Origin: Acholoe squamosa | Taxonomy: Eukaryota > Annelida > Polychaeta > Phyllodocida > Polynoidae | Length of the DNA: 64,000 bases | Reading direction: 5' to 3' | Assembly: GCA_949317995.1 (NCBI GenBank) | Contig: OX439043.1 | Span: 42,351,560 to 42,415,559, forward strand | Shown here: one piece after another, positions 1,521-59,620 of the stretch | Numbering within the stretch: position 1 is the first letter of the stretch | Layout: every line of letters begins with the position of its first letter | Notes under the pieces: model-generated | Told to the model about the DNA's origin: nothing | Databases searched by the model: none | What the model saw: the letters and a program-made list of their open reading frames with translations, nothing else | Position numbers and translations under genes: made by a program

Positions 1521-1744
1521 GCCCAATGTGTTACCACATATTTCACATGAAATGAACCATGCACAGCTGTACATATTTAAGTTAAACTGGTACACTCGTA
1601 ACCTTTGCTATTTTTAAGTATTTTAATATAAGTACTGAGATGAGTACTTGTAAAACGTAGACCAGGATTAGTGTCTCTCTTCTCCATCCCGTGAATAAAA
1701 AAACATTTGAATTAAATTATCTACATTGATACACAGTAATGTCA

Positions 1745-2300
1745 GTCTTTAGTCTTTAGGCTCCTTATATGTTAAACTGTACAAGGCATAGAGTCGTACA
1801 CAATGAAGCAAACAACAGTCAAAAGTCTTCTTTTTCAAAGGTTGAAGACCTGCATCTTGCAAGCACTTTCTCTTCTGTATGTTAGCTCTTATCAGACGCC
1901 TGAGTCTTTTTCTCTTGGTCTCATCTTCCTTCCCTTCTCCTGACTCAATCTCACTTAATTTCCTCTTCATCCTCCTCTCCTCTCTCTCCAGTCTCACATA
2001 GGCCCTCATTCTGTTCCTCTCTGCCTTCCCCTCTTTTTCACTTTCTCTTTTTTTCTCTTTCAACAGTGTCCTTTATCAGGCACAGAGGGTTTTCTTTCCC
2101 TTATTTGCTCCCTCATAGTGTCATTTTTCCCTTGCTTTTCAATGTTTTCTTGGCTAGATGTTCAGCCTCTTTCTCCTCTATTCTCCTCTCTAGCAACATT
2201 TCCCTCTTGTGCTCCTTCCTCCTCTCTTCCTTCCTTTGCCTAGCTTCTCTCTTTGGCACCTCTTTGACCTTTTTTCCCTTCCATTTTCATTAACGACATT
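1745..2300 (-). pseudogene. Charged, Lys/Glu/Arg-rich coding remnant of the Harbinger second gene
   Basis: The - strand keeps long open stretches in two frames (about 2,290-2,115 and 2,063-1,749). Together they read as highly charged, helix-forming sequence dominated by Lys, Arg and Glu, with one frame change and a stop between them. I cannot name a domain. Position inside the element and convergence with the transposase suggest the C-terminal exon of the second Harbinger protein, often Myb/trihelix-like. Compositional bias alone could produce such open frames, so the coding claim is modest. Confidence 0.35.
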
Positions 2301-3172
2301 GGCTTATGACGTCGCATTCAGGGGGAAACAAGTGGTGCCATCTGTTGATTCGGCTTGGAAATGCTTTCACCAAACCCTCTTGTGGTTATTTCCAGTTTGA
2401 TGGATACATATCTATTTCTGTTATGTTTTACTCCCATAGAGGGCCTGTAGAGACATTCTTTTTATATAAAAGGCACTAAAAGTTCATGAGGAAAGGGGCC
2501 TCTAACAAAAGAATGAAATGAATAGAAACTAGTTCAAATAAAAGTCTTTATTCAGAAAAAATGTTCAACACCTTATCTTTTAATTTCTTTATGAGTTCGA
2601 CATGCCTTAGAGAAGCCTGTATGGAACAATCAATTTTTTTTTATTATTTTTCCTTGATTAACAGGTCACTTTTTTTCTAATTAAATGACGTCTGCTTGTC
2701 TCTCTATCTAAATGAAAAGCTGAATTTTACACACCTTATTAAAACCAATCGTCTCTTTATGGTGAATGCACTGAATGGCGTTTAAAAGGAAACCTTGATT
2801 AAGATATTAACTTGCCTCTAAATATGGGTTGCATAACAAGTAATTTTTTTATGCTGCTTGCATGTCTCTTTATCTCCTTGTGTAAATGACTTCAGAGTTA
2901 AATTTAAAAACTTGGGCATATAATAACTCTCCTCCTTTTGCTGGGAAATACAATGTTTATTATGTTTTCAGAGAATTTAAAAGCCTTGGTTAACGGCATA
3001 GAAGATGACTTTAGTGAAAAGAAGTCTTCCCTGCGATGTGACCATTCCCTTGTGCACAGGAGATGAAAATGTATGTTAGCATAACTTGTGCTAAAAATTG
3101 AATCTACTAAAGCAAAATTAAAACATAAAGTATAAAGTCCCATATAACCATTAAAGGAGAGAGTCGTTCCTT
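2301..3172. other. AT-rich interior of the Harbinger element, no gene seen
   Basis: Intronic or intergenic sequence of the transposon. I find no coherent coding block on either strand. The open stretch on the - strand at 2,904-3,143 has no family resemblance and no useful splice context. Confidence 0.4.
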
Positions 3173-3592
3173 ACCTGCTATTTCTTTGGTTCCCTTATAT
3201 TGTAGACACATCACTTCCGTCCCATTACAGCCTTCACATTCGATCCCCTTCTTGATACGTTTGACGTACTCCTCGTTCTGTGTGTCAGAAAAAAAGGTAT
3301 ATGTAAGTTTTGTTGAAGGAAGGCAAAATGGTAAATGTTATTGAAACCCCAGAGAAAATAAAGAAAGGACATAGTAATACCTGTGCTCCATCACACCAAA
3401 TAAGGTACGGTAAGGGTATTTCATTTCAAATTGTGAAAGACTGAGAGAAGAAAGAGGAAAGAAAAAGAATTCTCTGAAGTACTTACTTTATTCTTAAGTC
3501 TGCTGGCAAAATCATTTATGTGTTTGCACATGTCCTTCAAGACCCGTCACTTCTTTCTGTTATGAATGCTATTGACAGCAGCTGTAGAGGAG
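3173..3592 (-). pseudogene. Two exon-like blocks of the Harbinger second gene
   Basis: On the - strand, a block at 3,592-3,487 follows a CTACAG acceptor and ends at a GTAAGT donor. It reads as KDMCKHINDFASRLKNK-like helical sequence after one in-frame stop. A second block at about 3,284-3,173 ends at a GTAAGG donor and reads EEYVKRIKKGIECEGCNG and onward, with a CxxC pair that could bind metal. The two join in a sensible order. They probably belong to the second gene of this element together with the upstream exons at 3,771-4,724. The family is not recognised. Confidence 0.42.
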
Positions 3593-3770
3593 ACAAGACA
3601 CATGAGGTAGAACAGAGGGAACAATCTTGGTGTACAGGGATATATTTGAACTATGGAAGCAAGCGCTGTTCTTCAATAAGTGAAAAGTATATTTTTTATG
3701 GTTATTTCTTAAATGGTTAGTCTTAAAATATAATATTTTTATATATAAAAGAGAAATACACAGAGAAGTT

Positions 3771-4724
3771 TCATGTGGACTTCAATGACATCCGAGGGTA
3801 GGGGTCTTCAGCGTCAGGTTTGGCCTTGCTCTTTGCCTTCACAGGATCCTTTGTTTTAGTAGTTTTTTGTACTGTCTTAACGGGAGTCACTTTCTTCTTC
3901 TTGTTCATGGCGGGGCAGCAGGAGTGTTTTTTTTTGAGCTCATAATTTTCCTCAGTGAAGGCAGACTTTTCTTTTTTTTCGAAGACACCTTTTGTTGATC
4001 ATCGTCCTCCCCGCTGCTGCTCATCAACTGGGAGCTTTCAGACTCTTGCTTGGGGGCAGGCTGTTTTTTTTTCTTCTTTTTAGGGTAAGGGGACAGCTTT
4101 GTATGCAATATGTCAGGGAGATCATCAAGGTCTTCCTTGAAACTATCAGAGGTGTCTGAATGAGTTGCGGATGGCTGGTAGTCTCCATTTGCATCGTTGT
4201 CTTCTATGGGACTTTCATCTCCGCTTACATCATAGTCATTGGGGTCCTGAAATAAAATAAAATGGAATTAAAAATTAGCTTGTGTAGAAGGGAGAAGAAA
4301 GGTCCACATACATACGTCATACTAAATTCTAAAGGTCTTTCTTACCCACCCTACCCCCTCTTGATTTTTTTCTTTTTCAGTGTGCTAAAGGTAGATGGAA
4401 AGTTATTCCCTCCTGCTGGCCCAGACCCCCCTGCCCCCTCCCAAGCTGAACTCCTAAACACTCAATGTTAATTTCAATTAACATACAGCACAAAGCAAGT
4501 AGGAAGGGAAGGAAACACAGGAAAGAGCGCAAAAATATATAATAAACAGATTGCTTGTTTAAATTTGCCCTATTATCGCCCACTTCAAGACACATAAAAG
4601 CCACTGTGTCGACTTAAACAACGAAACAAAGTCTACAGAGAGACAAGACAAGGTCAATCCACCCTCTTTTATGTGTTGAGAGGCAAAAAGATTTGATTCT
4701 TACCATAGAAGAGTAGTAAGGCAT
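3771..4724 (-). pseudogene. N-terminal exons of a nuclear-type acidic/Lys-rich protein in the Harbinger element
   Basis: Exon A (4,724-4,704) encodes MPYYSSM and ends exactly at a GTAAGA donor. Exon B starts at 4,246 after a TTTCAG acceptor in the same phase. It first encodes an acidic Asp/Glu/Ser-rich stretch and then several Lys runs of nuclear-localisation type. The reading frame stops at 3,905. A second open frame continues the lysine-rich character to a stop at 3,771, so a frame change, probably at one of the homopolymer runs near 3,930-3,970, seems to have broken it. Acidic-plus-lysine composition fits a chromatin-associated partner of a transposase, but no domain is recognisable. Confidence 0.45.
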
Positions 4725-4999
4725 GATCACAAAAATTGCAGGAAAGTCACGCCGGAATTGACGTATTAGCGCAATTGGGTCAAATTTCGCTGATTCCCAT
4801 CGGCTTTTTTGACGCTAATGCCAGAAGGATTGTGCTCAGTCTGAGGTTCGCAATAAAAAGGTGTCGCTAGGACAGCGACTGTCGCTAATACAATGCGACA
4901 TGTTTTGTGTAATGTGCTACAAAATATGTCGCTTGGTTGGGTGTTATTTTAGCGTACTTTGTGGTAGCATAGGGTCGCTTTTTTGTGGAATGACCCCCT

Positions 5000-7900
5000 G
5001 GGCCGCTTCTACAAACCGGACGACCTCCTTGAACAGGGCTGACTGAAAGTTGGTCCCTCGATCAGAGTGTAACACAGCCAGGGGCCCTAGTCGACAGACA
5101 AACTCCTCTACCCCTCTTTCCGCCACTAATGCCGCCTGCTGATTCGGCACGGCGTACGCTTCCGCCCATATTCCACCACCACTACTATGAAAACGTTGCC
5201 CCGCCAAGACGGGGGAAGGGGGCCACCCAGTCCATGGATCACATCCCGCCTATAGCTGGGCCAGTAGAACTGTCCCTGACATCTCCGGAGGGTGTGAATC
5301 CTTCCCAGGTGTCCCGCCAGTCTGGGCCCATGTAGGGTAGACATCACCATGTCCCTTTTTCCCTCAGGAACTAGTATTTGCGTATGGACTCCTCCTTGGG
5401 GTGAGATCCAGTCCTCCACCCCCCGGGTCTACCTTGGAGGGTCCACGTCCGGACGACCCTCAGGGTCTCGTCCTCCTCCTGCCAAAGCCTCTACTCTGAG
5501 GGTGATCCTACTAAGTTCCCCACCTCTGGTTCATCCTCCCACTCCTGTGTATTGGCGCCCATCTGGGTGACCACCAGGCAGTGACTAGGGGCCTACCCTC
5601 AGCTGCACTGCTTACAAGGCACCTGTGAGAGCGCATCTGCATTGCCGTGATTCTTCCCCCGTCTATGTTGTATCTCAAAGTCGTACGTCCCCAGAACTTG
5701 CAACCAACGGGCCACCTGGCCCTCCGGTTCTTGAACCTGGTAACCCATCTGAGTGCCGCATGGTCCGTCCAGATGAGGATTGGCCACCCGATCAGATAGT
5801 GCCAGTATTTCTTCAAGCCAAAGACTACGGCCAAGAGTTCACTCCTGGTGAGCAGTAGTTCCTTTCAGCTCTGTTGAGCGTGTGACTCCCATAGGCCAGG
5901 ACGCACTCCTCCCCCTCCTGTTCCTGTGACAGAACAGCTCCCGCCCCGTACAGGCTGGTGTCTGTATCCAGGATCAGTTTCCCCTCTGGGCGAGGGAACC
6001 CTAGGAAGGGGGATGATACCAGGGCCTGCTTAATATCCAGGAAGGCTTCCTCACATTCCTCCATCCACTGGAATCGCCTGTCCTTTTTTTGCCGCTGCTG
6101 ATAAGGGTTTGCATGGGTAGCAAAGTCTTTGATAAAAGACCTATAATAACCCGCTAACCCCAGGAAACTGCGTATTTCCCCCTGGCACTCCGGCCTGGGC
6201 CAGTCGGCCACAGCCTGTACTTTCTCTGAGTCAGTGGACAACCCCTCAGTCCGTACTACATGCCCCAGGAAGGCTACTTCACTCCATACGAGTTGACAAT
6301 TCTTGGGTTGGACCTTCAGTCCAGCTTCCTCCAGTCTTTCCAAGACCACCCCCAGACGTTCCAGGTGCGTCTTGAAATCCTTAGAGAAAATGATGGTGTC
6401 CTCCAGATATACTAGGCAGGCTTTCCACTGTAATCCCTTCAGTATAATTTTCATTAGCCGCTCAAATGTGGAGGGGGCGTTACACAGCCCGGAGGGCATA
6501 ACCTGGTACTTGTACAGGCCCCCATGAGTAAGGCCGTCTTTTCCTGGTCCTGCTCCCTCACCCCCACCTTTCCGTACCTGCTGGCCAGATCGAGGGTAGA
6601 GAACCAGGAAGCCCCTCCCAGGGTGTCCAACCAATCGTCGATCCTGGGGAGGGGTTAGGCATCTTTCCTGGTGGCTTCATTTACCCGCCGGTAGTCCACC
6701 CAGAATCGTCTGGTCCCGTCTTTTTTCTTTACAATAACCACTGGGGAGGCCCAGGGGCTTTGGGACTTTACTATAATGCATTTTTGGAGCTTCCCCTCGA
6801 CCTTCTCATCCATCTCCGCCTGGAAGAGTGGGGCTGGCCCTGGGGGCCTCTGTTTGTAAGGGGGTGCCCCGCCCGTGTCGATTTGATGCAAAGTGATATT
6901 CGTCTGGCTGAAATCCCTCTCCCATTTGGCAAGCGCCCTGGTACCGCTCCTGCCGAACGTCCGGCTCGATCCCCTCCAACAGCTTCTCCCTAGCCTCCCT
7001 CCTCCCATGCCCTTGCGGGATCCACCCCTTCTGGGGCCCCCCAGCATCCCACAGAATTCCATGTCTGCCTCTGTGGCTGTGAGGTACCCCAGGTTGGTTC
7101 CCAACTGGACCCAGACCTCTCCCAGCCCCGTCCCCAGCAGGTACATTAATGTTTCTCTTCTTTTATCAGGGGATATGATTCCCTGCCCCACCCTAAGGCC
7201 CAGGCAATCCTCATTTGCCGTGGCTTGCTCGACAACCCCCACATAGGTTCCAATCCAGGGGGTAGTCACCCTCTATATATACGGTCACTATGACCTGGCT
7301 GTTACAAGGGATGAAGCAGTCCTTGGCCAGCACAGCCAGGCATTGTTCCTCCCACCTCCTCCTCTTGGCTGGGGTGGACACCTCAGCCCACAGCAGCTGG
7401 CATTGATTCAGGTCTACCAGAATATTATTCCTCCGGAGCAGGTCAGCTCCCAAGATGCCCTCTTGGGAGACATCAGCCACCAGGAACTCCCCCTTCATAT
7501 ACGCCCCTCCAATCGCCAGGGTCCCGGTTATCCATTCCTTGATCACCATGGGTCCCCCGTCCGTGCAGATCACGGACTTCGCTGGAGCAGACAGGGTTTG
7601 GATAATAGCAGGTTAATCGTCCTCTCAAAGATCTCCCCTTCTACTAACAACCCGGTGCCTGTGACCTCCCTCCCATGTTCGGCCCTTCTCCATCTGCCCC
7701 CACAGGGGTGGAGTATGGTCCGGCCTGTCCCTTCCCCAGTCTCCCGGGGTACGGCGGGACCAGTCCACGGGGCCGGCTGTCACCTCATAGCTTCCGCCCA
7801 GCCAGTCTTGCCGACCGTTCTTCCACTCCTGCCGAGGCTGGCCCCTCCTCCTTAAGAAGATTTCCTCCTCCCCGCAGTCCACCACTGTGCCCCTGGCATT

Positions 7901-45769: not shown

Positions 45770-48700
45770 GGGGGGGGAGTTAGTAGGTAAGAACGAGCAT
45801 TGCTAATAAGACATCATACAAAGAACGCCTCAGTAGCAATGAAAAACAACAAAAAAAAAAAAGGTAGGAAGACAATGAAAGGCAATTATCGTGCCCTTGT
45901 TCCGTGGTGAAGCTCGGTCACAACCTGTTATAATGGTTACAGCAGTAGGTTTATATACCATGATGGGCAGCATACAGGTTCATAACAGAGGGGCAGTGTA
46001 TAGCCACAGGGCTCCGCGACCAGACATAGTAAAATAAAGGCTAGACACCCTAAGTGCTATGGAGACATTATAATTATGGTATAGAACCCTTCACATAGTC
46101 TTCTTGTACCCCTTAACCATTGTAAATGTAAGAGATATCCTTAGGAAGACAATGTACAAGATGCTACCTACAGTGGCCCAGGAGGGTCAAATTGTAGAAA
46201 CAAAAAGCACAAAACAGAAAAAAAAAAAAAAACGAATTCACAAAGTCAATAATGAATAAAAAAAAAAAGACAAAAAAAATGAAAATGAAATTAGCAAAAT
46301 ACCAAATTTCATTCACGAAGTCAATGAAGAATGAAAAATGGCAAAACTGGTGCCTCCCTGAAACCGTTTGAATAGTAATACCATTTTCAATTCTCAGCTT
46401 CAATATAACAACTTCATTTTGGCATTGATATACGTATGTATGTGCAAGGCTGCACCATAGTGAGGCACAAGATTTCAATCACACCTAGAAAACTTAAAAT
46501 AAACAGTTCATAGACTGTTCATAAATGTGTCAACGGCATTCTCAAGTTTCTTATATGTACATAAAATACCCAAGAGTCACCCGTCATTCTAACCAGGGAG
46601 GACACTATGTTGAATCATAAGATAGAAAGGAAGTGTGCCTATAGAAATATTGATGAACAGGTGCAGGGAATTGCTATCAGGTGGCCTTATAAACCAATAA
46701 AGTCAGTTTAATGGTAAAGTAATGTTTTGTGCCTCCCTTATAGTTCACACCTTCAATCCGCCAATCCTATAACACAAAGAATCTACCCACAAAAGGCCAC
46801 CAAACAAACACCACCCCCCACGAAAACACAAATATCCACACTTAGAGATTTATGGACAGGAAATTAAACCTCTGGGGTCTGCCCTCTTCAGTACAGGTCA
46901 ATTGGCCTGAAGCGCACCAACTGCAGGTAAATGCTTCTCTCTCCAGACGGCAATAATGTGCAACAAATTGTTAAATTTAGGTGAAGCTGCCCCAGCACCT
47001 TGCACCCCTGGAACAGTAAAGAACCTAGCTGTATACATGGGCATGGAAAGCAGGGGGGACAGGGGGAACATGTCCCCCCACTTTTGGCCAACTCCTCAAA
47101 AGGTCAAAACTAAAAGGTCAAGCAAAGGGAGGTCAAAAATTGCAGAAACCCCCCCTGGTCCCACCCACTCTGAAACTGCTTCCCACGCCCCTGGTATAGG
47201 ACTGTTACAGAGCACACCCATACCCTTAGTGTGTTGAAAGGGGATGCTGGTCATATCTGCACTGTGACACTTAAATGTGTCCATCAGCTCCTTTTCCGTG
47301 GTTGGGTCTTACAATTGGTTTTGATGTGTGCATGAGACTCAAACTAGGTTTGCTCAACGCCATGCTTGCATTTCACTAGCAGATGACGGAGTGGCAGATG
47401 TGTATTATGCATTTACCCATTGTCTCAAATGAGACGTCGTCGTCGTCGCCGCCGTCGTCGTCGTCGTTCTCGTCCTCGTCGTCATCATCATTATCAAGAA
47501 GCAACTGATGAAATTGTTATTCCTGCTTGTATGCTTGGCATTCTTTACCAGGGCAGAAACACCAAATTCCGTACCAACTTAAGTGCGATGGCGCATGGTT
47601 TTATGGCGGGGGATGCAGTAAGATATGCCTCCTATCTGTAGACAGGTAGCCCAGGTAGCGGTACTTGTCAATGCTAAGGGGCTAAAGGTTAACAGGTGCG
47701 TCACTCCGCCCACACGCACCAGGTGGTGCCCATTTGTAACATAACACTCTCCTAGCAGATACCAAGGATTCTACTATTTGTTATGCATCACAAAGAGTCT
47801 GCTTGTGAGAGAAAGGGTGAAAGTTACAGGCAGGACCCTTTAATTTTCTCTTCTCTTTTTGTAATGAGATGTTTATATTTTTAGCCTAGGAAATCGTTGA
47901 TAGTATAGTAAAATCTGTAGGGATAGACAGGTTTTTGATGGTGGCAAATGAGATAATATCTGAATATTTGTGTTCATTATATTTTCAAGGATAGCTGTCC
48001 TTGCAGTATCAAGGAATGAAGGATGATGATGTGTTTCTAAAAGCAAGTTTCAAATCAGAGCGCCAGATAGCCTGTCTACCTGCCCCATCCCTGCCTATCA
48101 AATAGCCTGCCTACCTACCCCATCCCTGCCTATCAGATAGCCTGCCGACCTGAGGCAGGGGTGGTCACAGGACAACATGAGGGGGTGGTCACAGGACAAC
48201 ATGAGGCAGGGGTGGTCACAGGACAACATGAGGGGATGGTTACAGGACAACATGAGGCAGGGGTGGTCACAGGACAACATGAGGCAGGGGTGGTTACAGG
48301 ACAATGTGAGGAAAGGCTGGTCACAGGACAAGGTGAGGAAAGGCTGGTCACAGGACAAGGTGAGGAAAGGCTGGTCACAGGACAAGGTGAGGAAAGGCCG
48401 GTCACAGGACTGCACATGGAAAGGCTGGTCACAGGACTGCAAGGAAAATGGGTGGTTACAGGACAACTGGGGGAAGGGGTGGTCACAGGACAACACAAGG
48501 AATTTTGTGTCCTGTAACCACCCTTCCTCGTTCTGTCCTGTAACCAGCCTCACTATAGCGTTGTCCTGTGACCACCCTCTCATGTTACTGTCCTGTAACC
48601 ACCCTTCCCTCATGCTGAACTGTAACCACCCTCCCCTCATGCAGTCCTGTAACCACCCTCCCCTCATGCAGTCCTGTAACCACCCTCCCCTCATGCAGTC

Positions 48701-51700
48701 CTGTAACCACCCTCCCCTCATGCAGTCCTGTAACCACCTTTTCCTTGTCCTGTCCTGTAACCATCTTTTCCTTGTGCTGTCCTGTGACCACCCTCCCCTT
48801 GTGCTGTCCTGTGACCACCTTTCCTCGTGCGTATAGTGCCACTATATGCACGAGGCCCTCATTCGTATATCGCTTCCCCTCTCCATGTCAGAGAGTCTGT
48901 CTACCTGCCCCATCCCTACATGTCAGGCACTCTGTCTACCTGCCCCATCCTGCCATGTCAGATAGCCTATCTACCTACCCCATTCCTCCCTGGCAGATAG
49001 CCTGTCTCCCTGCCCCATCCTTCCATGTCAGGCAGTCTGTCTACCTGTCCCATTTTTCCATGTCAGATAGCCTGTCTACTTACCCCATCCCTCCATGTCA
49101 GATGGTCTGCCTACCTACCTCATTCCTCCTTGGCAGATGACCTGTCTATCTGCCCCATCCCTGCCTGTCAGGGTGCTTGGACGTGTCATGAAAAGTGTTA
49201 CTCTACAGTTAGGGCTGCATTCATGCACCATGGGTATAGCCCCTATGTCACAAAAGTTTAGAAGATAGGGACTGTTGTGACATGGTCAACATTTCATGGT
49301 ATTTGAAAGTTTTCCCAAAGTCAGCGTGTAGCTTATACATGAAATGCGCCTGATATGGGAAGATTTACAGTATATGTTGAGCTCAGGAGAAATATACTCA
49401 TCTTTAATGGTGGGGCTATCAGTTTGTATATGTGGGGTTTTATGGTGTTTATGTCTAACTGCGAGGTTATGGGGCACGTAGGGATGAAGGTGTTGATATG
49501 TTAGATATCCTATAGCTGGGCCACTCCCAAGACAGACACAATTTATGATAAATGCAATCTGACCCAGATCCTGGAACATATGAATGTCAATGCCAACAAG
49601 CAGAAACACCACTCCACGAAGAAATTTTAATTCCCCATTAGACCACCAGGAGCCAATTCCCTGTGATCACATGTGAAGGTTGTTTCAATATCCCTGATGA
49701 CGACATAGGCCTCAGCTCTTAGCTCACAATGCACTGGTCAGAGTGACCAACATTAGTGCATGTTCAAGATTACATATAGTTACCAACCTTAGGGAGGAAT
49801 GTCTGATGACAACATCCCTCTCCAGTAAGATAGCAAAGTCGTCAGTAAATTGTCAGAGCGTCAGCTATATTGAAATAAGCGCCTCTGCAATTTGGAGGTA
49901 TAGTGGAGGGACGGAACACCCACAGGCCTGTCAGTGAAGGGAACCAGTCTTTACTATATCAATAAAAGTTCAACACAACTGGATTCCTTGGTGTCACTAT
50001 AAGGGGCGATGTGTGATAATTATTTGATTAAACGTCTGTAACTAATGATTTTTGTTGAAACAAGCTGGTTGCTAAGCAACTATCAATATTTCAAATTCCT
50101 CGATATCCCTCACAGAAAAAAATCAAAATTAGTAAATATTAATTTAACTTAGACAAAACCACTGGTTAGGCAAAATACCCAACATGTTAGTAATATTTTA
50201 CTAATGTGTTAGTTGTATTCACTAACCTATTCAGGCAAGATGGCTTGATTTAGCCAAGAGAGAAAAGCGGTCTTTTTGTCTAAAGGGTTAGTATTTTTAT
50301 CGAAGGGTTAGTAGATTTCTTCACACCAGGTGGCAGTGTGGTTTGCATGAGGACTTTTGTGGGAAGTGTCTATCATAGAAAGGCCTACAAATGTGAAATT
50401 TATGGCACTTCTAATGATTATTGACATGATAAAGCCTTCACCATTCAACCTGGCATAGGACTTAACAGAATACAGCCTATAGGTTGATTATGTTATTGAT
50501 GGGTGTCTTAATCCATGTGGAGTTTACACCTATCATTTGAATCAAAATAAAAGAATTGGTACTATGGGTATTGAAATAGTCCATGTAGTTAGTGAAAAAG
50601 TCTAAGGCAAGTTAGGAAGAATGCCCAACTTGCCTGATTTCTCCTAAGGGTTAGGCGTAAACTCCCAAGAAAACTTCGGTGGTTTGGCGACATGCAAACT
50701 CCCAACTTCCCTTAGCAATTCCAACAAATGTTAGGCAAACAGACTAAGATATTGAGAATTTTTTTTTTGTGTGCTCGGGCTACCCACCTTTAATAAGTTA
50801 ATAGAACCCCCCCCCCACCCTGCCAAGAGAAAAAAAACAACTCAGACAGCAAATGTGAGGTAACCTACCCCCCCTGGCTGCCGGACAACAGTGGTTTATT
50901 TCAATATCACTGACGATCTGAAAAATCACTGACGATTTGGATATTTTTTATAGTGGAGAGGCATGTTGTTGTCAGACATTCTCCTCTAATTTTCGTCTCT
51001 ATGTGATAATGCACAAAGAACTTGGTAGAACAGTCTAAGCAGTAATTTAAATGGCTCATAGTGGGTTTCCTGACGATGAATTGGAATAAGCCCCTAGGTC
51101 TTTTCCTCAAAAGTGAGATACCAGGGTGTTGCTGATTTCTAGGACAACCAATAATGTACACCCTTAGACAAATCTCGCATAATACGTTTGTGTGTGGTGG
51201 GGAGGGGTGGCTTGGTTGGGGGAGGTGGTCCATCATTCATCCAGTGTTGTCCATGTGAGTGCTGATAGGTGGTGGGTGAAGGAGAGTAGCCTTTCTACAT
51301 ATCAGAGGTATACCTTGCTTCTCCTCTTACTACCCCGCCACTACACCCCCCCCCCCCTTACTACCGTACACACTAATGTAGTCCCCGGAATGTAGCACCT
51401 GGTAAATTACCTCACCTGGACCGTGCTACAACATCAACAGGCACTTGTTGAGAAAAAGATGTAATCCAAGCCTCAACACAATATCTTTTGATTCTCCAGA
51501 ATCCTGGCTGAACAAAACTTACAACCGAGGGAGTGGTTGTCAGCTAACCTAGGTAGCAACAAGCGAGTAAGACAGAGTGGCAATTTGAGATGTTGGGACG
51601 TCTTGTTGTCTTTACCTTCTCTGACAATGGCAGGGAATCCTGACATAGACATGATAATTAGAGGTAGGGTACAGATAACCATGGGTGTTGTGTAGGGGTT

Positions 51701-53805: not shown

Positions 53806-56800
53806 TTTTGTAAAAATACGTCATGATAGGTTCTACTGCTGCAGGCACAAGTTTCTGTATATTAAAATTGATATTTTCAGAAATAGGACGTGTCTACCTA
53901 GCTTGTTTTCGCACATTCTCGTTGTTTACAAGACCTTCTAATTTTCTATTTCACATGAATAAATATCTCAATTGATTACTTACAGGTAAAACAGCCTCGT
54001 CCTGTGGGTTTGAGGAGGAGTCCATATGTGGCTTCATGCAGGCTGACAACACCACAGACTTCCACGACTGGATCCGGCACAGTGGTGCCACCCCGTCAGG
54101 GTGGACGGGACCAAGAAATGATCACACCTGTGGCAATGACAGAGGTGAGTACTCTCTGATAGGAGGATGAGGGAAATGCCCCTGGGTGTGTTGGATGTGG
54201 ACATACATAATTTATATGATTTAGGATGTACAAAAGGCCCACAGGTCATCAGTAACCCGGTGGTCATTTTATCGATAGAATGACCACTGGTGGTCATCCT
54301 ATCAATATGATGGCTACTGGAACTGAATCTATGCTGGCTACTATAGTACCTGACCTACCTCGTAAAGGGGAGGAGGGAAGGGGGGGGGAAAGGAATGGAA
54401 GGATGGGAGGGGAGGTGAAGCGAAAAGGAATAAGGGGAGAGGAGGAATAGAGGGGAGGAAGCGGGGAGGAAGGGAAGGGAAGGGAAGAAGGGAAGGGAAG
54501 AAGATGCTGGCAGAGATGCCACATGTGGTCATCCTATTGTTAGGACACACATTATGTTACCAGTGACCAATGGGCCTGACGTGCATCCTATAACACAGGG
54601 ATGCCCACAAGCAGTGGGCATACCTATTATACAGGATGCACGTAGATGGACTGGGTGCACCCCCATGCTGTAGTTTGGTATCGTCTTATTAGGGTTTTTT
54701 AATTAATGGCGACCTAGATTACTGAAATATGCCCCAACTGCGCCCCCCTCTGAACCCAAGCGATAAAAGCATTTTTAGCAGGGCACTAATAGTAATACAC
54801 CTTTGCCCCTTGGCTACCTGTTTGAATGCGGTTATTTAAATCAGACGAATATATGGAGAGTTATACCGAAACACTCGAAAGAAAGCTAGGAAGCAAGCCA
54901 GACTCAGAGTAGGACGTATAAATGGACGAGCCCAGATGTAAAATAATTAAAAAAATAGCAACACAGGGGAAAGAAAAAAGTGCACATGTAGGAAAATGAT
55001 TGATATGGGTACCCGGATAAGTGAAGTAGTGGTGTAATTTATCATAGTGTTTGACGAGTTAGTTACAGAGCGGCTCCCGCCTCTGTGTCTTTGTTTGACA
55101 AGCTGTCAGATCGTTTCTTACTACTGCCATAATCACAACTGTCTGCATGCATCAAATGTAGGAGTAGGGTGGGCGTCAAGTCACCCCCTTCTATCTCCTC
55201 TTGTCACAATGGGTATCATATGGTCTAGTGATAATGCATCTGTATGTATTTTTGAATACGCCAGGACGAAGACTGAAAAATCTTGCTGTCGACTCTTGAA
55301 TGCCTCTTTACCAAACACCGATCAATTGCTTTCAATAATAAAAAAAAAATAAGAAATTCGTTGAATGGCTTCATTAGCACAAACCGCGCTACTGAGACTG
55401 ATCATAAAAGCCCCTACACTTTATAGGCTGCAAAACACTAATTATTTTTCCACTGTTGGCCTATATAGCATATTGGCAAAAATAAAATATGCATGCACAT
55501 TTCTGGGCTTAGCCACTATTATTTTCTTGTAGGCACACATTTTTCCCATTAATTCAGGGCCATGAGATGTGGTACAATGTAATTAACTTTTCCGCTATCG
55601 GCTGTAGAGTGCGGACATACCCAAATTTGGGGGTTTTGCAGTGAATGATTTCAATAAATTCTCTAATTAAATAGAGTGCACCCCCCTCAACTTACCATCA
55701 AATATCAGCCTGAATAACACTCAAATCAATTAATATACACTCTAAGGATTAATTTGATGCCTGGTTTGCCTACCCACTGTCAGATTTTAGACCAATAATC
55801 TTTGTACAACACCCTTCAGTGCGGAGCTAAAAAGTGTCTCCTGCTGCCACCTCCCGTCAATTGGTGTACTGCAACCTATAGCCCACAAGCGGTAGGTTAT
55901 GGTTCCTACACTAGAGGGAAGCACATGCTGGATCCAGTCCACTAAGACTCTGAGTCGTGTACAACTTTTCCCACAAGAGGTTAGCACTGTGCATTAAGTC
56001 CCACCGCCCTAGTCTGTCTGCTCTTGATTTAGTTACAGCAGGCTCAGTAGGCATGATACCGATGACAGCGGTTTAGCTAGTCCTCAGGGCTACAGTGCCT
56101 GCCGCGTCCGCGCTGACCTAAATACGCGGACTCTACGCGGAGCCTCCCGCGGTGAGCATAGGTGCGCGGGCGTAGTGGTAGTCCTCAGGACTATAGCTAA
56201 TAATTCTTAGTCCTGGGGACTAGGTGATAGTTTAGCCCACAACTAAACTATACCGGTCAAGTCCTGGGGATAAAAGCATAGTCCTAAGGACTAAAGCCTA
56301 GTCCCCAGGACTAAGAATATGAGGATATTGTCCTAGGGACTAATTGTACATTCCCATGAATAACCCTGCAGACCCCATGACTTTGTATAAGACTGTGCTG
56401 TTAGTCTCCAGGACTAAGCTTTTAGCCCTGGGGACTACTTCATAGACTCAGGGACTACTTGTTTAGTCCTGAGGCTACAAAAACATCTGCCTAGTCCTCA
56501 GGACTATTGCATGTGGTTCTGAGGACTAATTCATTGATTGATGTCTAATGTAGTTTGACTAGGGATGTAGTCCCCAGGACTTCAAATTTAGTCCTGAGGA
56601 GTACTTCAAAGTCCCCAGGACTGCTCTGTGTAGTCCCAGTGACTAAAGATACAGTCCTGGGGACTAGAACATTGTCCTTGGGACTAGAGACACAGTCCTT
56701 GTGACCAATGCCCTAGGCCCCAGGGGTGCCTGTCAACATGTTTGTACAGTCAAATAGGTATAGCCCTGGGCGCAAAAAAGCAGCCATTGTTCCATAGTCC

Positions 56801-59620
56801 CTGGGATAGAACATTAGGCCTGAGGACTGTATAGTGGTCCTCAGGACTAGTCAGTCCAGGACTAGACCATTATATCTGTAGTCCCCAAGACTAGAGAAAC
56901 AGTCATGGTCCCCTGGGGATTAGATTCATAGTCCCAGGGCTACCTCTGTTTGGTCCTGAGGACTAAATATATACTTACCTAGTCCTCAGAACTAAAGTAA
57001 AGTCCCCAGGACTATTATCTGTAGTCCCTAGGACTTTCAGCGCGGACGCGGACGCGGCAGGCGCTTTAGTCCTGAGGACTAGTTAAACCGCTGTCATCGG
57101 TATCCTGCACTCAGTAGACTATATTATCGACTATCGTAATATTTACCTCGCGTATTTATAAGGCGCGACTTATATGCGAGGATTTGCCGCGCCTTATAGA
57201 ATGTACCTTGTAGGCCTGTACTATAGAACAGTATAAGAAAACCACCCTCAGTGTGCAATTTCCTTCAACTCAGTGTGCGCCTTATATTAAAGCGGGGTGT
57301 CTATATTGTACGTGACGTACGTGTATATTACGGTAGTTTGGTGATTGGAGTTGAGACAGACTTATAACGGAGATATGCCCTATATAATCTTTTCATCGTG
57401 AATATTTTTAAGGAAACATACATGTATACATAACCAATTAATGTGCTGTTTGCTAGTGATTGCATAGCTTATAATAACATACTTCATCACTTGATGTGAC
57501 ACAATTTCTTTATGTGAATGGGGGACCAATGTAATCATTAGAACGAATAACAAAATAATTATAGGTAATTAATTCCCATGTTTCTATCTTCAGGTCACTA
57601 CATGTATGTGGAGGCGTCAACCCGGGGCGAGGGACAGACAGCTCACCTCATATCTCCCAAATACCAAGGGATGGGAGAACAGTGTTTGGAGTTTTACTAC
57701 CACATGTACGGCCGTGATATAGGCACTCTGCATGTATATACACAGGTATACTATGTTATTTGCTGCATTTTCATAGAATGATTTGCCGATACCCCCCTCC
57801 GATACTTAGGAATCTCGTTAGGGCCTTGGTATCAGAGAAATTCTATGCTCTGTAGTATGGACCTCTGAGCATGCCATAGATACTTAAATGTATGGGAGAC
57901 AGTGGTCCTTGCTAGACTTTGATTTGTGTGGGCAATGTCTGCGAGTCCATGTATAGGGCCTACGTCTTAACTACGAAATTTCATCTTTGAGTCCTTCATT
58001 GGGAATGTTTATTACTAAGAAAAGATCGTTTCTGCATCTGAAAGACATATCTTAGCCCCAAAGGATAAGCAATGATACAAACTGTCATACTAGGATTTAT
58101 GACCATATTTCATTACCACAATACATAAATAGCCAATAATACTCTCGGCTATTTCCTGCAGAAGTCTGATACTTTGTGGATCACATTTTAACAATGATGT
58201 CCTTTTAACCTAATAACCTGTACATGCAGTGTATTGATTTTGCCCACTGGTAAGATAATGTATGAGTCCTCCTATCAACAACTCTTCAAACAACATTGAA
58301 ACCCCCTGGTGGAGATCGTATAGCCAATATTGGGCCATTATTGGGCCAGTGGTCAAGCTACCATTGGCCCAATATTAGAAGTGATATGTTGGCTCAATAT
58401 CGGAATTTGAATAATACATCAATGTTCTTTTTGGCTAAGGTAAGCGTCTGTCCCAAAGCATCCTGGGGAGCAAGCAAGCAATGCCCGTTTCTGTAGTAGT
58501 GGGAGAGAGTTCCATTGACTTACACTAGGGTATCTGTGGTTAAGCAATATAGCATCGAGCAATGACACTAGGTGTCACGCAAGAGCCGTGGTAGGAACCG
58601 GTAGGAAGGAACTTGTCTAATAGCGCAAACAGCAGTTGTTTGCCACTATAAAGCAGAACAGTTTGCAGATTTTTTTTTGCCGATGGGCGTAACGAGCGAA
58701 AGTGTGACAAACAGGTAAATACTCATAGGCAAGGACATTTGTCAGGATGTTAAAATGTATTGCAGGCAAGGGTATTTGTCAGTATGTTAAAATGTATAGT
58801 AGGCAAGGACATTTGTCAGTATGTTAAAATGTATAGTATATTGTATCTCAAAAAGCATTGGTCAACAAAACACACAAAAGCGGAAAAAGCACAAACACAG
58901 AACAAATTGAAATAATAAGAAATGGTTAAAAATGATTATCATGCTGCATTTGGACACTTACTATACCCTTCAGGTTGTTGACGGTGAGGAATTCAACCCA
59001 CTTTGGAGGGCTTATGGTAACCAAGGCAACCTGTGGACACAGGCACGAATCGCCATCCCTGTGGAGGTTGTCAGAAAAGGATACAGGGTGAGTATAGCAC
59101 CTAGTCAAATGCCATGTGCGGTATTCGTTATATCATCACCTGATCACTACATTGGAAAGTTAAATACATTAAAAAAAGATTCAGTGAGAAATAATTCTTA
59201 AACAAAACAGGTTATTGACTTCAGTTGAAATTCTGCTCAATGTGAGGAATCCACATAAGCTGATGCTTTCTGAGCAATATTTCGTTACCTGGAATTGAAA
59301 AGAATGAAATGGATGTGATATTACCACTTCAAGTCAACAATTAAAAGATGAGAGGGCCTACACATGACTTACTGTAAACATGTTTTACCATCATTCCTTT
59401 CTATCTAGTATAATGTCCGCTGATTACAATTCCATGAGCTTTCCATTTCCAGATTATATTCGCCGCCATCTTAGAATATGGTTACCTTGGTGACATGGCT
59501 ATTGATGACGTCAGAGTGTTTGACGGAGAGTGTTACCACGTCATGACAGTCGAGGAGATGTCGGAGAAGTTTAACATAACGTTCCCTCCTCCTAGCACCA
59601 CAACCACCAGGTCTCCATGA
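26144..59620 (+). CDS. Secreted coiled-coil/MAM-domain protein, five coding exons
   Basis: Predicted 512-residue extracellular protein. Coding exons are 26,144-27,089, 53,986-54,144, 57,594-57,745, 58,974-59,087 and 59,453-59,620. Every junction is GT/AG and the phases agree (1, 1, 0, 0). The ATG at 26,144 has A at -3 and G at +4 and opens a signal peptide ([16 protein letters not shown]). An in-frame ATG eight codons upstream has poor context. Domains: signal 1-26; segment with Cys33, 40 and 50; short coil about 65-100; Pro/His-rich linker about 108-150; long coiled coil about 152-312; MAM domain 322-484 with [21 protein letters not shown] and AIDDV signatures and Cys322, 330, 364, 399, 484; short Thr-rich tail. 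There is no membrane anchor. MAM domains mediate extracellular adhesion and assembly. Signal, Cys segment, long coil and C-terminal globular domain recall angiopoietins, so a multimeric secreted ligand is inferred. Confidence 0.93.
28218..28307 (-). pseudogene. Decayed tRNA-like segment inside repeat copy 1
   Basis: On the - strand, CTTGGTATAGTGGACAGC matches an A-box-like sequence, followed by TTCGCCTCCTGCC and an eroded T-arm. It aligns base for base with the better preserved segment at 39,312-39,382. It is a component of the repeat and not a functional tRNA. Confidence 0.55.
28944..29012. repeat. 27-bp-arm hairpin at the end of repeat copy 1
   Basis: The arms 28,944-28,970 and 28,986-29,012 match at 25 of 27 positions (core CTGGAAATATTCGCCC) with a 15-base loop that is itself palindromic (CTGCGCAG). 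Weaker complementarity continues outward to about 28,919 and 29,058. Confidence 0.9.
31469..31512. repeat. (TG)n microsatellite
   Basis: About 22 TG units with one TTTG interruption. Confidence 0.95.
31801..32109. mobile_element. Harbinger-like MITE (family A), complete, 309 bp
   Basis: The ends GGGAGTGATAACTTTTTAAC and TTAAAAAATGATCACTCCC form imperfect TIRs of about 20 bp. TAA flanks both ends (31,798-31,800 and 32,110-32,112), the 3-bp target duplication expected of PIF/Harbinger elements. The interior is rich in GGGGGTCA..TTTTGACC blocks and homopolymer C runs. Related copies are at 32,554 and 45,625. Confidence 0.9.
32554..32920. mobile_element. Family A MITE, second copy, truncated and interrupted
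   Basis: Starts GGGAGTGATCATTTTTTAAC directly after TTA and matches the reverse complement of the 31,801 copy. A 157-bp family B element splits it at GCGTTACT / ATAGGTTAAAAGG. The distal TIR is missing beyond about 32,920. Confidence 0.85.
32687..32843. mobile_element. Small TIR element (family B) nested inside the family A MITE
   Basis: Begins CATGGGCATGGAAAGC and ends GCTTCCCACGCCCCTG, about 16-bp imperfect TIRs. It is flanked by TTACT and TTATT if three extra A residues belong to the element. About 93 percent identical by eye to the copy at 47,036, where the target duplication is perfect. The nesting shows that family B was mobile after this family A copy landed. Confidence 0.87.
33503..33992. 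mobile_element. TTAA-target MITE (family C), 490 bp
   Basis: TIRs start AGCTGC(C/T)ACAAGA and end TCTTGTAGCAGCT. TTAA stands outside both ends (33,499-33,502 and 33,993-33,996). The inverted counterpart at 62,367-62,844 shares the interior TGCAATGACTCCTTTCC and AGACTTTGGTTTGAACTA blocks. TTAA targets are used by piggyBac and Kolobok elements. No transposase is present. Confidence 0.88.
36248..36320. repeat. (GA)n microsatellite
   Basis: Interrupted AG tract of about 70 bp. Confidence 0.95.
38645..39558. repeat. 0.95-kb dispersed repeat, copy 2 (opposite orientation to 28,041-29,058)
   Basis: Better preserved copy. It ends, reading the - strand, with TCTCACGATT after TTTA. It contains an internal inverted repeat: AATAAGAATCCATTGATTTT at 38,998 and its complement at 39,151, about 130 bp apart. 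The tRNA-like segment is on the + strand at 39,312. The left end also carries an imperfect palindrome (about 38,650-38,725) at the same place as in copy 1, although its sequence differs. Confidence 0.8.
39312..39382 (+). pseudogene. tRNA-like segment (SINE-type head or tRNA fossil)
   Basis: TTGGTATAGTGGACAGCGAC fits the A box, and GGGGATCGATTCCCC gives a perfect 5-bp T stem with a 7-base loop and a B-box-like core. Acceptor pairing is poor (GGTCGAC against GTTGAACC) and the anticodon arm is weak, so it is not a working tRNA. Unlike a classical SINE head it lies inside the repeat, about 175 bp from one end. Confidence 0.6.
41144..41294. mobile_element. Possible hAT-like MITE fragment
   Basis: The right end reads, on the - strand, CAGGGGCGGACCCAGC, a sequence type common at hAT-element ends. 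The left end CAGGGGGGGCATTCG is a loose match. A GCTGACACCCCCTCC block lies inside. No clear 8-bp target duplication was found, so this is tentative. Confidence 0.4.
42606..43524 (-). pseudogene. Non-LTR retrotransposon (LINE) reverse-transcriptase fragment
   Basis: The - strand encodes the C-terminal half of a LINE reverse transcriptase. The polymerase motif KPKYADDIG lies near 43,250-43,276. The following thumb region includes [32 protein letters not shown] and [10 protein letters not shown], then an RR.WY.H segment and a final [29 protein letters not shown] tail ending at TAA (42,608-42,606). There are at least two in-frame stops, one directly after YADDIG and one at the usual Gly after WY. 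The 5' part (N-terminus, endonuclease, fingers) is absent beyond about 43,524, typical 5' truncation. Motif spacing fits RTE/Nimb/jockey-like clades. I do not assign the clade firmly. Confidence 0.88.
43978..44004. repeat. Perfect 27-bp palindrome
   Basis: CCAGTGGCTGTGT, one central A, then its exact reverse complement (13-bp arms). Isolated, with no array nearby. Confidence 0.95.
45622..45675. mobile_element. Family A MITE fragment
   Basis: TTA followed by GGGAGTGATCCTTTTTTTC, the family A terminus, is preserved for about 50 bp and then runs into a GATA/GA microsatellite. The distal part is gone. Confidence 0.65.
45676..45772. repeat. (GATA)n/(GA)n microsatellite
   Basis: GATA units grade into a pure GA tract ending in a G run. 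Confidence 0.95.
46215..46275. repeat. A-rich tracts
   Basis: Two poly-A runs (about 17 and 11 A) separated by a CACAAAGTCAATAATGAATA spacer that recurs, modified, near 46,312-46,334. Confidence 0.8.
47036..47193. mobile_element. Family B TIR element, complete, 158 bp
   Basis: Starts CATGGGCATGGAAAGC and ends GCTTCCCACGCCCCTG. It is flanked on both sides by GTATA (47,031-47,035 and 47,194-47,198), a 5-bp target duplication. The CAGGGGCGTGG-type end resembles hAT termini, but hAT duplications are usually 8 bp, so the superfamily is uncertain. No coding capacity. Confidence 0.9.
47430..47485. repeat. (CGT)n trinucleotide repeat
   Basis: About 18 imperfect CGT/CGC units grading into CAT. The Arg-rich + strand frame over it is a repeat artefact. 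Confidence 0.93.
48060..48154. repeat. 35-bp minisatellite, left segment
   Basis: About 2.5 units of CCATCCCTGCCTATCA..TAGCCTG.C.ACCT. The same unit, in the same orientation, resumes at about 48,885. Confidence 0.85.
48155..48830. repeat. Two opposed 27-bp minisatellite arrays forming a giant inverted repeat
   Basis: Left array (48,155-48,500): about 13 units of GGTGGTCACAGGACAACATG plus 7 bp. Right array (48,515-48,830): about 12 units that are its reverse complement (CCTGTAACCACCCTCCCCTC plus 7 bp). Each array has its own variants (AGGTGAGGAAAGG on the left, CATGCAGT on the right). RNA or single-stranded DNA could form a stem of some 300 bp. Unit length divisible by three keeps several Gly/Trp/Gln and Cys/Pro frames open without coding meaning. 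Confidence 0.92.
48885..49180. repeat. 35-bp minisatellite, right segment
   Basis: About eight units of CATCC.TCCATGTCAGATAG followed by CCTGTCTACCTGCCC. It continues the left segment at 48,060-48,154, so the opposed 27-bp arrays look inserted into this older array. Confidence 0.9.
50111..50773. mobile_element. Dispersed repeat (family F), about 660 bp, possible TIR element
   Basis: The ends are CACAGAAAAAAATC and, on the - strand, CACACAAAAAAAAAATTC. The subterminal regions are dense in TTAG/CTAA motifs (GGTTAGT, GTTAGGCAAA). The left 400 bp aligns in the same orientation with 63,234-63,560 (CCTATTCAGGCAAG, GGCATGAGGACTTTT, CTGGCATAGGA). No coding region and no clear target duplication. Confidence 0.75.
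52679..52802. mobile_element. Short TTAA-target MITE (family D), 124 bp
   Basis: Terminal inverted repeats of about 31 bp (AGGGCTGCATCCACTGC.. and TGGGGTGCGTCCACTGCC..) share GACGGATGGACCAT. TTAA directly flanks both ends (52,675-52,678 and 52,803-52,806). The right TIR contains an additional perfect palindrome around GGATGGTCCATCC. The target suggests piggyBac or Kolobok. Confidence 0.9.
53471..53650. repeat. Left arm of an intronic inverted repeat bracketing exon 2
   Basis: Starts GATGCAAGTTAGGCCCATTG and runs through TGTGTCCTAACAATAGGATG and CATCTCTGCCAGCATCTTC into a pyrimidine-rich TTCCC tract. It is the reverse complement of 54,365-54,587 at roughly 85-90 percent identity by eye. The two arms enclose coding exon 2. 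Confidence 0.9.
53702..53805. repeat. (GA)n microsatellite
   Basis: AG tract of about 100 bp with few interruptions, 180 bp upstream of exon 2. Confidence 0.96.
53986..54144 (+). CDS. MAM gene coding exon 2 (start of the MAM domain)
   Basis: 159 bp, phase 1 to phase 1, residues 316-368. Preceded by TTACTTACAG and followed by GTGAGT. Encodes [11 protein letters not shown], the first MAM cysteine pair, W and DHTC. The symmetric length means that skipping or circularising it preserves the downstream frame. The flanking intronic inverted repeat makes that possibility worth noting. Confidence 0.93.
54365..54587. repeat. Right arm of the intronic inverted repeat bracketing exon 2
   Basis: Complement of 53,471-53,650, ending GGGCCTGACGTGCATC. 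The purine-rich GGGAA part is longer here than the matching pyrimidine tract, so the simple-sequence section has expanded or contracted since duplication. A GTGGTCATCCTAT motif inside it recurs at about 54,290. Confidence 0.9.
54581..54641. repeat. Imperfect hairpin adjoining the inverted repeat arm
   Basis: GTGCATCCTATA .. ATGCCCAC, loop AAGCA, GTGGGCAT .. TATACAGGATGCAC. The outer half overlaps the tip of the exon-bracketing arm. Confidence 0.85.
56051..57109. mobile_element. 1,059-bp TIR element packed with AGTCC/GGACT palindromes, 8-bp target duplication
   Basis: CTCAGTAG occurs immediately outside both ends (56,043-56,050 and 57,110-57,117), an 8-bp direct repeat of the type made by hAT or P elements. 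Terminal inverted repeats begin GCATGATACC (left) and TGCAGGATACC (right, complement) and continue about 55 bp through GATGACAGCGGTTTA, a copy of the palindrome and CCTGCCGCGTCCGCG. The interior carries about 35 variants of TAGTCC(T/C)(C/G)(A/G)GGACTA, spaced about 20-45 bp, many of them perfect palindromes such as AGTCCTGAGGACT. No coding region. It lies wholly within intron 2 of the MAM gene, about 480 bp upstream of exon 3. Confidence 0.9.
57131..57336. mobile_element. Candidate MITE with GCGCCTTATA motifs, 206 bp
   Basis: The ends CTATCGTAATAT and (complement) CTACCGTAATAT form short TIRs. GCGCCTTATA or its complement occurs three times inside (near 57,158, 57,189 and 57,277). It starts about 14 bp after the palindrome-array element's target duplication. 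No convincing duplication of its own, so tentative. Confidence 0.5.
57594..57745 (+). CDS. MAM gene coding exon 3
   Basis: Residues 369-419, phase 1 to 0. Acceptor CTATCTTCAG, donor GTATAC, which is weaker than the others. Encodes [27 protein letters not shown] and GTLHVY, the central MAM strands, with Cys399. Read-through past the donor would add 12 residues before a stop at 57,779-57,781. Confidence 0.93.
58320..58405. repeat. Cluster of GCCAATATTGGGCC-type palindromes
   Basis: Four or five imperfect copies of (G)CCAATATTGG(GCC), in both orientations, around GGTCAAGCTACC. The design resembles the GCCAGTACTGGC motifs of the 12,916-13,903 element, but no TIR ends were found. Confidence 0.6.
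58728..58842. repeat. Minisatellite, three units of about 37 bp
   Basis: GGCAAGG(A/G)(C/T)ATTTGTCAG followed by (T/G)ATGTTAAAATGTAT, repeated three times with about 95 percent identity. Confidence 0.92.
58974..59087 (+). CDS. MAM gene coding exon 4
   Basis: 114 bp, 38 codons, phase 0 to 0, residues 420-457. Acceptor CCCTTCAG, donor GTGAGT. Encodes [12 protein letters not shown], a conserved MAM segment, followed by the IAIPVEV strand. Confidence 0.92.
59088..59452 (+). other. MAM gene intron 4, 365 bp
   Basis: Short GT/AG intron with a TTTCCAG acceptor. Nothing else is recognised in it. Confidence 0.9.
59453..59620 (+). CDS. MAM gene coding exon 5 and stop
   Basis: Residues 458-512. Encodes [20 protein letters not shown] and the last MAM cysteine (Cys484), then a short tail with an N-glycosylation site (NIT) and a Thr-rich end, stopping at TGA 59,618-59,620. 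There is no transmembrane or GPI-type C-terminus, so the product should be secreted. Confidence 0.93.
   Translation: MIFAAILEYGYLGDMAIDDVRVFDGECYHVMTVEEMSEKFNITFPPPSTTTTRSP

What the first reader, a model, noticed from the sequence alone, without database searches (positions are those of the whole stretch)
56051..57109. A transposon-like element whose interior is ~35 copies of one palindrome
The element has an 8-bp direct repeat (CTCAGTAG) at its edges and ~55-bp inverted ends, both marks of cut-and-paste insertion. Nearly everything inside is variants of AGTCC-N-GGACT, spaced 20-45 bp and independently mutated. Ordinary MITEs carry motif repeats only near their ends. Here the palindrome fills the body and is also part of the TIR. 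This suggests sites for a dimeric protein, probably the transposase, kept or multiplied along the element. The 8-bp duplication points to hAT or P; the rest is inference.
Basis: partly seen in the sequence, partly recalled or inferred. Interest (0 to 1): 0.85.

Follow-up and report, generated by a model that had tools for sequence, protein, structure and literature searches.

The report
Jumping DNA packed with palindromes
A transposon with no gene found in it, present in hundreds of copies in one 1.48-billion-base genome, has most of its length filled with copies of one 15-base palindrome spaced about two DNA turns apart, probably docking sites for a paired protein such as the enzyme that moves it.

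Summary
The element is real: window 56051-57108, flanked by a decayed 9-bp (not 8-bp) target duplication. Its body carries a palindrome, TAGTCCYNRGGACTA: 12 exact cores, 25 with at most one mismatch, 33 with at most two; shuffles give 0, 0-1 and 0-6. About 744 such ends exist in the 1.48-Gb host genome against 3 control matches. Of 34 copies parsed, 24 have perfect 9-bp duplications. One insertion has an empty site elsewhere. Several long copies are foldback elements with two inverted palindrome-filled arms, up to 80 sites. The 68 copies found with two perfect tips run 955-11445 bp, median 1632; the four over 4 kb look like ordinary copies holding foreign DNA. No copy with a transposase was found. 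Duplication length and architecture fit Mutator-like/foldback transposons and argue against hAT or P. Within the array cores are conserved while spacers are near random, spacing is mostly 20-22 bp, and altered sites show no compensating changes. That favours double-stranded sites for a dimeric protein over hairpins. Transposase binding is the likeliest reading but is inferred; continuing selection on the motif could not be shown.

The parts
56042..56050 (.). left copy of the 9-bp target duplication, GCTCAGTAG
   Evidence: 8 of 9 match to 57109-57117; 24 of 34 parsed copies show perfect 9-bp duplications
56051..56112 (+). left terminal inverted repeat (tip GCAT, GCAG in most other copies), includes one palindrome at 56079-56091
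   Evidence: 92% match to 57047-57108 reversed; end core seen 744 times at <=2 mismatches
56079..57080 (.). array of about 33 palindromic sites, core AGTCC-YNR-GGACT, usual spacing 20-22 bp
   Evidence: scan with shuffles, position-by-position information, spacing in longer copies
57047..57108 (-). right terminal inverted repeat, includes one exact palindrome at 57068-57080
57109..57117 (.). right copy of the 9-bp target duplication, ACTCAGTAG
56051..57108 (.). whole element: 1058-bp shortened member of a family whose 68 perfect-tipped pairs have median length 1632 bp

Best explanation
This is a non-autonomous cut-and-paste DNA transposon of the foldback type, most likely moved in trans by a Mutator-like (MULE) transposase. 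Shown: conserved 25-bp tips, terminal inverted repeats, 9-bp target duplications, one empty site, hundreds of ends, and long copies with two inverted palindrome-filled arms. Inferred: each 15-bp palindrome is a double-stranded site for a dimeric protein. Sites about 20.5 bp apart put successive dimers on one face of the helix, so the arms would load many dimers cooperatively. This would raise recognition or synapsis of the ends and let short sites compete in a 1.5-Gb genome. The protein is most likely the transposase, because the same palindrome sits inside the terminal repeat, starting 29 bp from the tip, exact or nearly so in the ends printed.
For: Ends: 370 forward + 374 reverse matches at <=2 mismatches, reversed control 3. 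Perfect 9-bp duplications in 24 of 34 parsed elements and in 5 of 7 long copies fetched later (L059 and L061; L062; C11 unit; L066/L029); of the other two, L058 matches at 8 of 9 (read by eye) and L060 does not match. Empty site: the joined flanks of L061 match L029:3081-3307 at 92% over 237 bp with a single GAAAACAGT. Foldback arms: L018 219-2170 is self-complementary at 95%; L061, L023 and L021 have similar arms. Core against spacer: mean core identity between sites 0.82, spacer 0.30, adjacent spacers 0.32. Spacing 20-22 bp dominates; phase at 10.5 and 20.5 bp exceeds all 1000 null draws in the 4 copies tested. Of 250 core base pairs in one array, 47 are changed on one side, 1 on both, 0 changed to another complementary pair; the inner Y and R vary independently (TA 11, CA 8, TG 7, CG 3 of 29). 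None of the 68 perfect-tipped pairs is shorter than 900 bp. Analogy: Muta1 (9 copies of a 12-bp subterminal repeat) and Galileo (transposase THAP sites shown in its long repeats), from passages of PMC5225508 and PMC3688188.
Against: No autonomous partner: none of 36 MULE (PF10551) matches lies within 60 kb of the 200 listed perfect ends, and the four perfect-tipped pairs over 4 kb hold other DNA. But only 200 of 234 perfect ends were listed (the two lists stop on C17 and early on C15) and ends with mismatches mostly were not. Core and spacer columns vary nearly alike among copies (44 of 281 against 71 of 393; changed cells 0.84% against 1.22%) and between the two arms (4 of 345 against 7 of 477, p 0.77); both tests have little power because the copies are young. 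In a more diverged array in L026 the two longer alignments show mildly fewer core changes (34 of 155 against 67 of 214; 12 of 68 against 28 of 106), which overlap in the same stretch, and one shorter alignment goes the other way (6 of 30 against 10 of 85); I picked these out of 56 possible alignments. The null of the phase test uses random gaps, so a decayed tandem repeat would also pass it. Sites were chosen for likeness to the motif, which works against seeing double changes. No protein-DNA binding was tested.
Confidence: 0.6

Rival explanations
1. The array is a decayed minisatellite of about 20.5 bp that expanded in an ancestral terminal repeat and hitch-hikes; it has no present role.
For: 20-22 bp unit spacing and weak tandem-repeat calls; core and spacer vary nearly alike among present copies; another foldback element has expandable tandem repeats (PMC4079207 passages).
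Against: In a neutrally decayed unit all positions should decay alike, but spacers are near random identity (0.30) while cores are at 0.82.
Confidence: 0.2
2. The palindromes are sites for a host dimeric DNA-binding protein (activator, repressor or insulator) that the transposon exploits; movement itself needs only the tips.
For: A symmetric 15-bp site with free centre is typical of host dimeric factors (general knowledge). Sites fill the body rather than only the ends.
Against: The motif is also part of the terminal repeats printed, exact or nearly so. No host factor was sought or identified here.
Confidence: 0.17
3. The palindromes act as hairpins in single-stranded DNA or RNA (cruciforms, small-RNA precursors).
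For: Each site could form a 5-bp stem with a 3-base loop, and several long copies are large foldbacks.
Against: No compensatory change among 48 altered core pairs; the inner Y/R pair is often C-A or T-G (15 of 29).
Confidence: 0.04
4. Same architecture, but moved by another superfamily with 8-9 bp duplications, such as Merlin or Rehavkus.
For: Merlin-type transposase domains (PF12762) are present, 46 matches; Rehavkus has 9-bp duplications and a minisatellite (PMC6446971 passages).
Against: No Merlin match lies within 95 kb of the 200 listed perfect ends. Rehavkus was not searched separately.
Confidence: 0.25

Closest known systems
Muta1 and relatives, Aedes aegypti (MULE, type 2 foldback; PMC5225508 passages)
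   Same: 8-9 bp duplications, repeat-rich inverted ends, many non-autonomous derivatives with variable repeat number; its 10-bp terminal motif is also an imperfect palindrome
   Different: Muta1 has 9 copies of a 12-bp tandem repeat with 3-4 bp spacers confined to 145-bp ends; here tens of palindromes with near-random spacers fill the body. Muta1 has a known transposase.
Tm1, root-knot nematodes (Mutator/foldback; PMC3169594 passages)
   Same: mostly 9-bp duplications, composite terminal repeats with variable numbers of a ~14-bp motif, MITE-like copies
   Different: Tm1 has transposase-coding members; none found here. The passages I saw do not call its motif a palindrome (the word-stem occurs once in the paper, in a place I did not see).
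Tetris, Drosophila virilis (foldback; PMC4079207 passages)
   Same: 8-10 bp duplications, foldback arms with internal repeats, no autonomous copy found; assigned to Mutator on the same kind of evidence
   Different: its internal repeat is named TIR-220 and builds satellite arrays; not a short palindrome
Galileo (P superfamily, foldback-like; PMC3688188 passages)
   Same: long internally repetitive ends with several transposase (THAP) sites shown by binding assay
   Different: different superfamily; three sites described in the passages
Rehavkus (PMC6446971 passages)
   Same: 9-bp duplications, a minisatellite before the 3' end
   Different: PHD-finger transposase; no homology tested here

Membership tests
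Mutator-like elements (MULE) | 8-11 bp target duplication, often 9 | tested here: met
   24 of 34 parsed elements perfect at 9 bp; 5 of 7 later long copies
Mutator-like elements (MULE) | terminal inverted repeats | tested here: met
   62-132 bp at the ends of the copies compared
Mutator-like elements (MULE) | family member with same ends encoding a MULE transposase | tested here: inconclusive
   36 PF10551 matches, none within 60 kb of 200 of 234 perfect ends; ends with mismatches mostly not listed
Foldback elements | long inverted arms made of short repeats | tested here: met
   met in L018, L021, L023, L061; single-array copies L001, L009, L013 and copy L059 show only the short ends as main inverted match
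hAT | 8-bp target duplication | tested here: not met
   9 bp
P element | 7-8 bp target duplication (recalled) | tested here: not met
   9 bp
Merlin | 8-9 bp duplication (recalled) | tested here: met
   9 bp
Merlin | IS1595/IS1016-type transposase with same ends | tested here: inconclusive
   46 PF12762 matches, none within 95 kb of 200 of 234 perfect ends
Rehavkus | PHD-finger transposase | not tested
   no coding partner found; not searched separately
MITE | short (mostly under ~800 bp, recalled) | tested here: not met
   68 perfect-tipped pairs run 955-11445 bp
MITE | non-coding, high copy | tested here: met
   no frame over 140 aa in L018 and L022, two frames of L018 without Pfam match, no long frame in L059-L061; 744 ends

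The most novel reading that the evidence does not exclude
The body of the element is a scaffold: some 27-80 dimer sites, largely on one face of the helix, let the mobilising protein load along the whole transposon as a cooperative nucleoprotein array. The transposon would then be recognised by total site number rather than by its tips alone, which would explain why no perfect-tipped pair below about 0.95 kb was seen.
Probability: 0.25. Interest if true: 0.68.

Novelty: new variant of a known kind. Interest (0 to 1): 0.5.

Why it matters
What the long internally repetitive ends of foldback transposons do is an old question (raised in the passages of PMC3688188 that I saw). Here the repeat is a sharply defined palindrome standing out from near-random spacers, in hundreds of copies with different site numbers. 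That makes the multiple-site hypothesis directly testable by binding and by transposition with altered site number. It also gives a concrete motif with which to look for the binding protein.

Tried and rejected
Autonomous partner. I fetched the four perfect-tipped pairs over 4 kb. L058 (5.4 kb) has short arrays and a nested inverted-repeat insertion; its only frame of 80 aa or more is 87 aa. L062 (8.9 kb) is an ordinary long copy with a ~4.7-kb insert whose 317-aa frame looks by eye like a retroelement integrase. L066 with L029 (6.6 kb) is an ordinary copy with a nested retroelement, judged by eye. The C11 11.4-kb unit has ordinary arms around virus-like DNA. I recognised no transposase for these ends in any of them. 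L059-L061 have no frame over 96 aa.

Selection on motif. Among-copy variation and arm-to-arm differences gave no clear signal; copies are young (mean 1.2% from consensus). The diverged tail of L026 gave only a mild, alignment-dependent signal.

Rows dropped. In one search, L002-L008 were skipped as duplicates of larger loci, and L046-L047 as window surroundings. Of the 38 loci kept, L024, L029, L037, L038 and L045 gave no element because one end was not recognised; L015 gave two. Searches used 39 array stretches of at least 600 bp; shorter matches were dropped. In one search I used 4 of the 56 alignments. One search flagged two junction-spanning matches in the part of its output that was shown (the output was cut): L061, used here, and L013, which lies in a simple repeat and was discarded.

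Not answered. Requests for the genome-wide motif-pair pattern and for relatives of the diverged L026 array did not complete, so whether other transposon families carry the same palindrome is open. Literature: seven searches listed no paper that I recognised, from titles and abstract starts, as describing a palindrome-filled transposon body like this; most subscription papers are not in that library. The host was not identified.

Full report
What is there. The reported stretch is a transposon copy at window 56051-57108. Its ends are 62-bp inverted repeats (92% alike). The flanking duplication is GCTCAGTAG / ACTCAGTAG, nine bases with one difference, not a perfect eight. The window lies in a 1.48-Gb genome of 63 contigs. 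A search with the whole element listed 233 matches from 40 scored of 757 candidates, so that count is a lower bound.

The palindrome. AGTCC and GGACT separated mostly by Y-N-R occur 12 times exactly, 25 times with at most one mismatch and 33 times with at most two, in 1059 bp. Fifty dinucleotide shuffles give 0, 0-1 and 0-6, and the rest of the window has no exact match. With flanks the motif is TAGTCCYNRGGACTA; information is 1.2-2 bits at core positions, about 1 bit at the inner Y and R and the outer T and A, and below 0.4 bit elsewhere (29 sites with a 3-base centre). In a longer copy (L009) 50 sites at <=3 mismatches have mean core identity 0.82, while the six bases that follow them have 0.30 overall and 0.32 between neighbours, near chance. 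One spacer position three bases past the core is not random in the 29 units spaced 20-22 bp (A 19, T 9, 0.9 bit). Site-to-site distance is mostly 20-22 bp, about two helical turns.

Duplex site or hairpin. Of 250 core base pairs in that array, 47 are altered on one side only and 1 on both sides, without restoring pairing. The inner Y and R combine freely: TA 11, CA 8, TG 7, CG 3 of 29. Selection for hairpin pairing should give the opposite, though choosing sites by likeness to the motif works against seeing double changes. This favours recognition of double-stranded DNA by a symmetric, hence probably dimeric, protein. That step is inference.

Mobility. The 21-bp end core occurs 370 + 374 times at <=2 mismatches, against 3 for the reversed control. 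Of 34 parsed elements, 24 have perfect 9-bp duplications, 2 (the window copy and L018) match at 8 of 9, and 8 match at 7 of 9 or fewer, two of which form one composite unit. A repeat copy at L029:3081-3307 shows the empty form of the L061 site, 92% alike over 237 bp, with GAAAACAGT once instead of twice. The 39 array stretches compared differ by 1.2% from their consensus on average, so the family is young.

Architecture. Three forms were seen: single-array copies of about 1.6 kb (L009, L013 and others), shortened copies such as the window's, and foldback copies in which the array is present as two inverted arms, in L018, L022 and L023 followed by 1.4-2 kb without the array. L018 is self-complementary from 219 to 2170 at 95%. 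L061 has 73 sites by a two-mismatch pattern count over its locus; L018 and L023 have 80. Of perfect-tip ends, 100 of 113 and 100 of 121 were listed; they form 68 pairs of neighbouring, facing ends, 955-11445 bp, median 1632, none below 900 bp.

Search for the partner. MULE domains give 36 matches and Merlin-type domains 46. The nearest listed perfect end is 65 kb and 96 kb away respectively; the lists stop on C17 and early on C15, and ends with mismatches were mostly not listed. The four pairs over 4 kb were read: they look like ordinary copies with foreign DNA inside. One (C11) carries about 10.3 kb of other DNA between two ordinary arms, with a Pox_A32-type ATPase frame (E 6.6e-8) and a Death-domain frame (4.6e-12) among seven frames scanned, the other five without a match over Pfam's cut-off. 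The unit has a perfect 9-bp duplication, CGCAGGATA, made in the tip of another copy. About 690 bp of the usual element middle is missing there, so it is either a nested insertion with deletion or captured cargo. I saw no sign that it is the source of the transposase.

Is the motif still selected? Not shown. Among 39 array stretches, variable columns are 44 of 281 in matching core positions and 71 of 393 in spacers, outside CpG; changed cells are 0.84% against 1.22%; columns with at least two changes 11 of 281 against 25 of 393. Fixed differences between arms are 4 of 345 core and 7 of 477 spacer (p 0.77). In the more diverged array inside L026 I compared four of 56 possible alignments: core 34 of 155 against spacer 67 of 214; 12 of 68 against 28 of 106 (overlapping the first); 1 of 20 against 5 of 61; and the reverse, 6 of 30 against 10 of 85. 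Palindrome-rich DNA aligns with itself in many ways, so these are weak. The case for past selection therefore rests on the contrast between core and spacer inside the array.

Comparison with the known. A 9-bp duplication with complex repeat-bearing ends is the pattern of Mutator/foldback elements: Tm1 (PMC3169594), Tetris (PMC4079207), Muta1 (PMC5225508), and Rehavkus (PMC6446971); only passages were seen. Passages of a survey of arthropod MULEs (PMC13359780) suggest that long ends may offer several cooperative transposase sites. Galileo, of the P superfamily, shows that repeats in long ends can be transposase sites (PMC3688188 passages). In tomato, tandem-end MULEs outnumber single-end copies in one family, and better recognition is one explanation its authors offer (PMC3310237 passages). 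What differs here is the nature and extent of the repeat: a palindrome with near-random spacers at two-turn spacing, filling the body. Assignment to MULE is by duplication length and architecture only; the defining protein is missing.

Verdict. Real, mobile, and a clear family; best called a foldback-type, probably Mutator-like, non-autonomous transposon with a body-filling array of probable dimer sites.

Noticed in passing
L015 (C11:62573200-62579200), 1338-4788: Two copies in opposite orientation with 189 bp between them; their inner edges share no duplication but the outer edges share CACGGCGTC, as if the pair moved as one composite unit.
   Followed up: partly
C11:51446273-51457719 (L064, L063, L065): One copy holds about 10.3 kb of virus-like DNA (packaging-type ATPase, Death-domain frame; an integrase-looking stretch judged by eye) between ordinary array arms, with a perfect 9-bp duplication around the whole unit.
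   Followed up: partly
L026:2290-3260: A chimeric copy whose right half is a more diverged palindrome array, pointing to an older subfamily.
   Followed up: partly
L017 (C7:47144500-47150500): Two right ends with the same flanking bases and a second stretch of array, as if flank and array were repeated in tandem.
   Followed up: no
L023 3800-5240, L064:760-1005: A second repeat, with units such as TTAAAATCGACATGTGACATGG, sits in the non-array part of a long copy and once inside an array; origin unknown.
   Followed up: no
window 48151-48819: A 27-bp tandem repeat of 13 units is followed by about 12 units of roughly its reverse complement, an inverted pair of minisatellites.
   Followed up: partly
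window 5825-6634: Reverse transcriptase and RNase H fragment of a retroelement (Pfam).
   Followed up: no
window 57120-57400: Just right of the element lies a stretch rich in CGCCTTATA-like units that, by eye, resembles L026:2820-3060.
   Followed up: no
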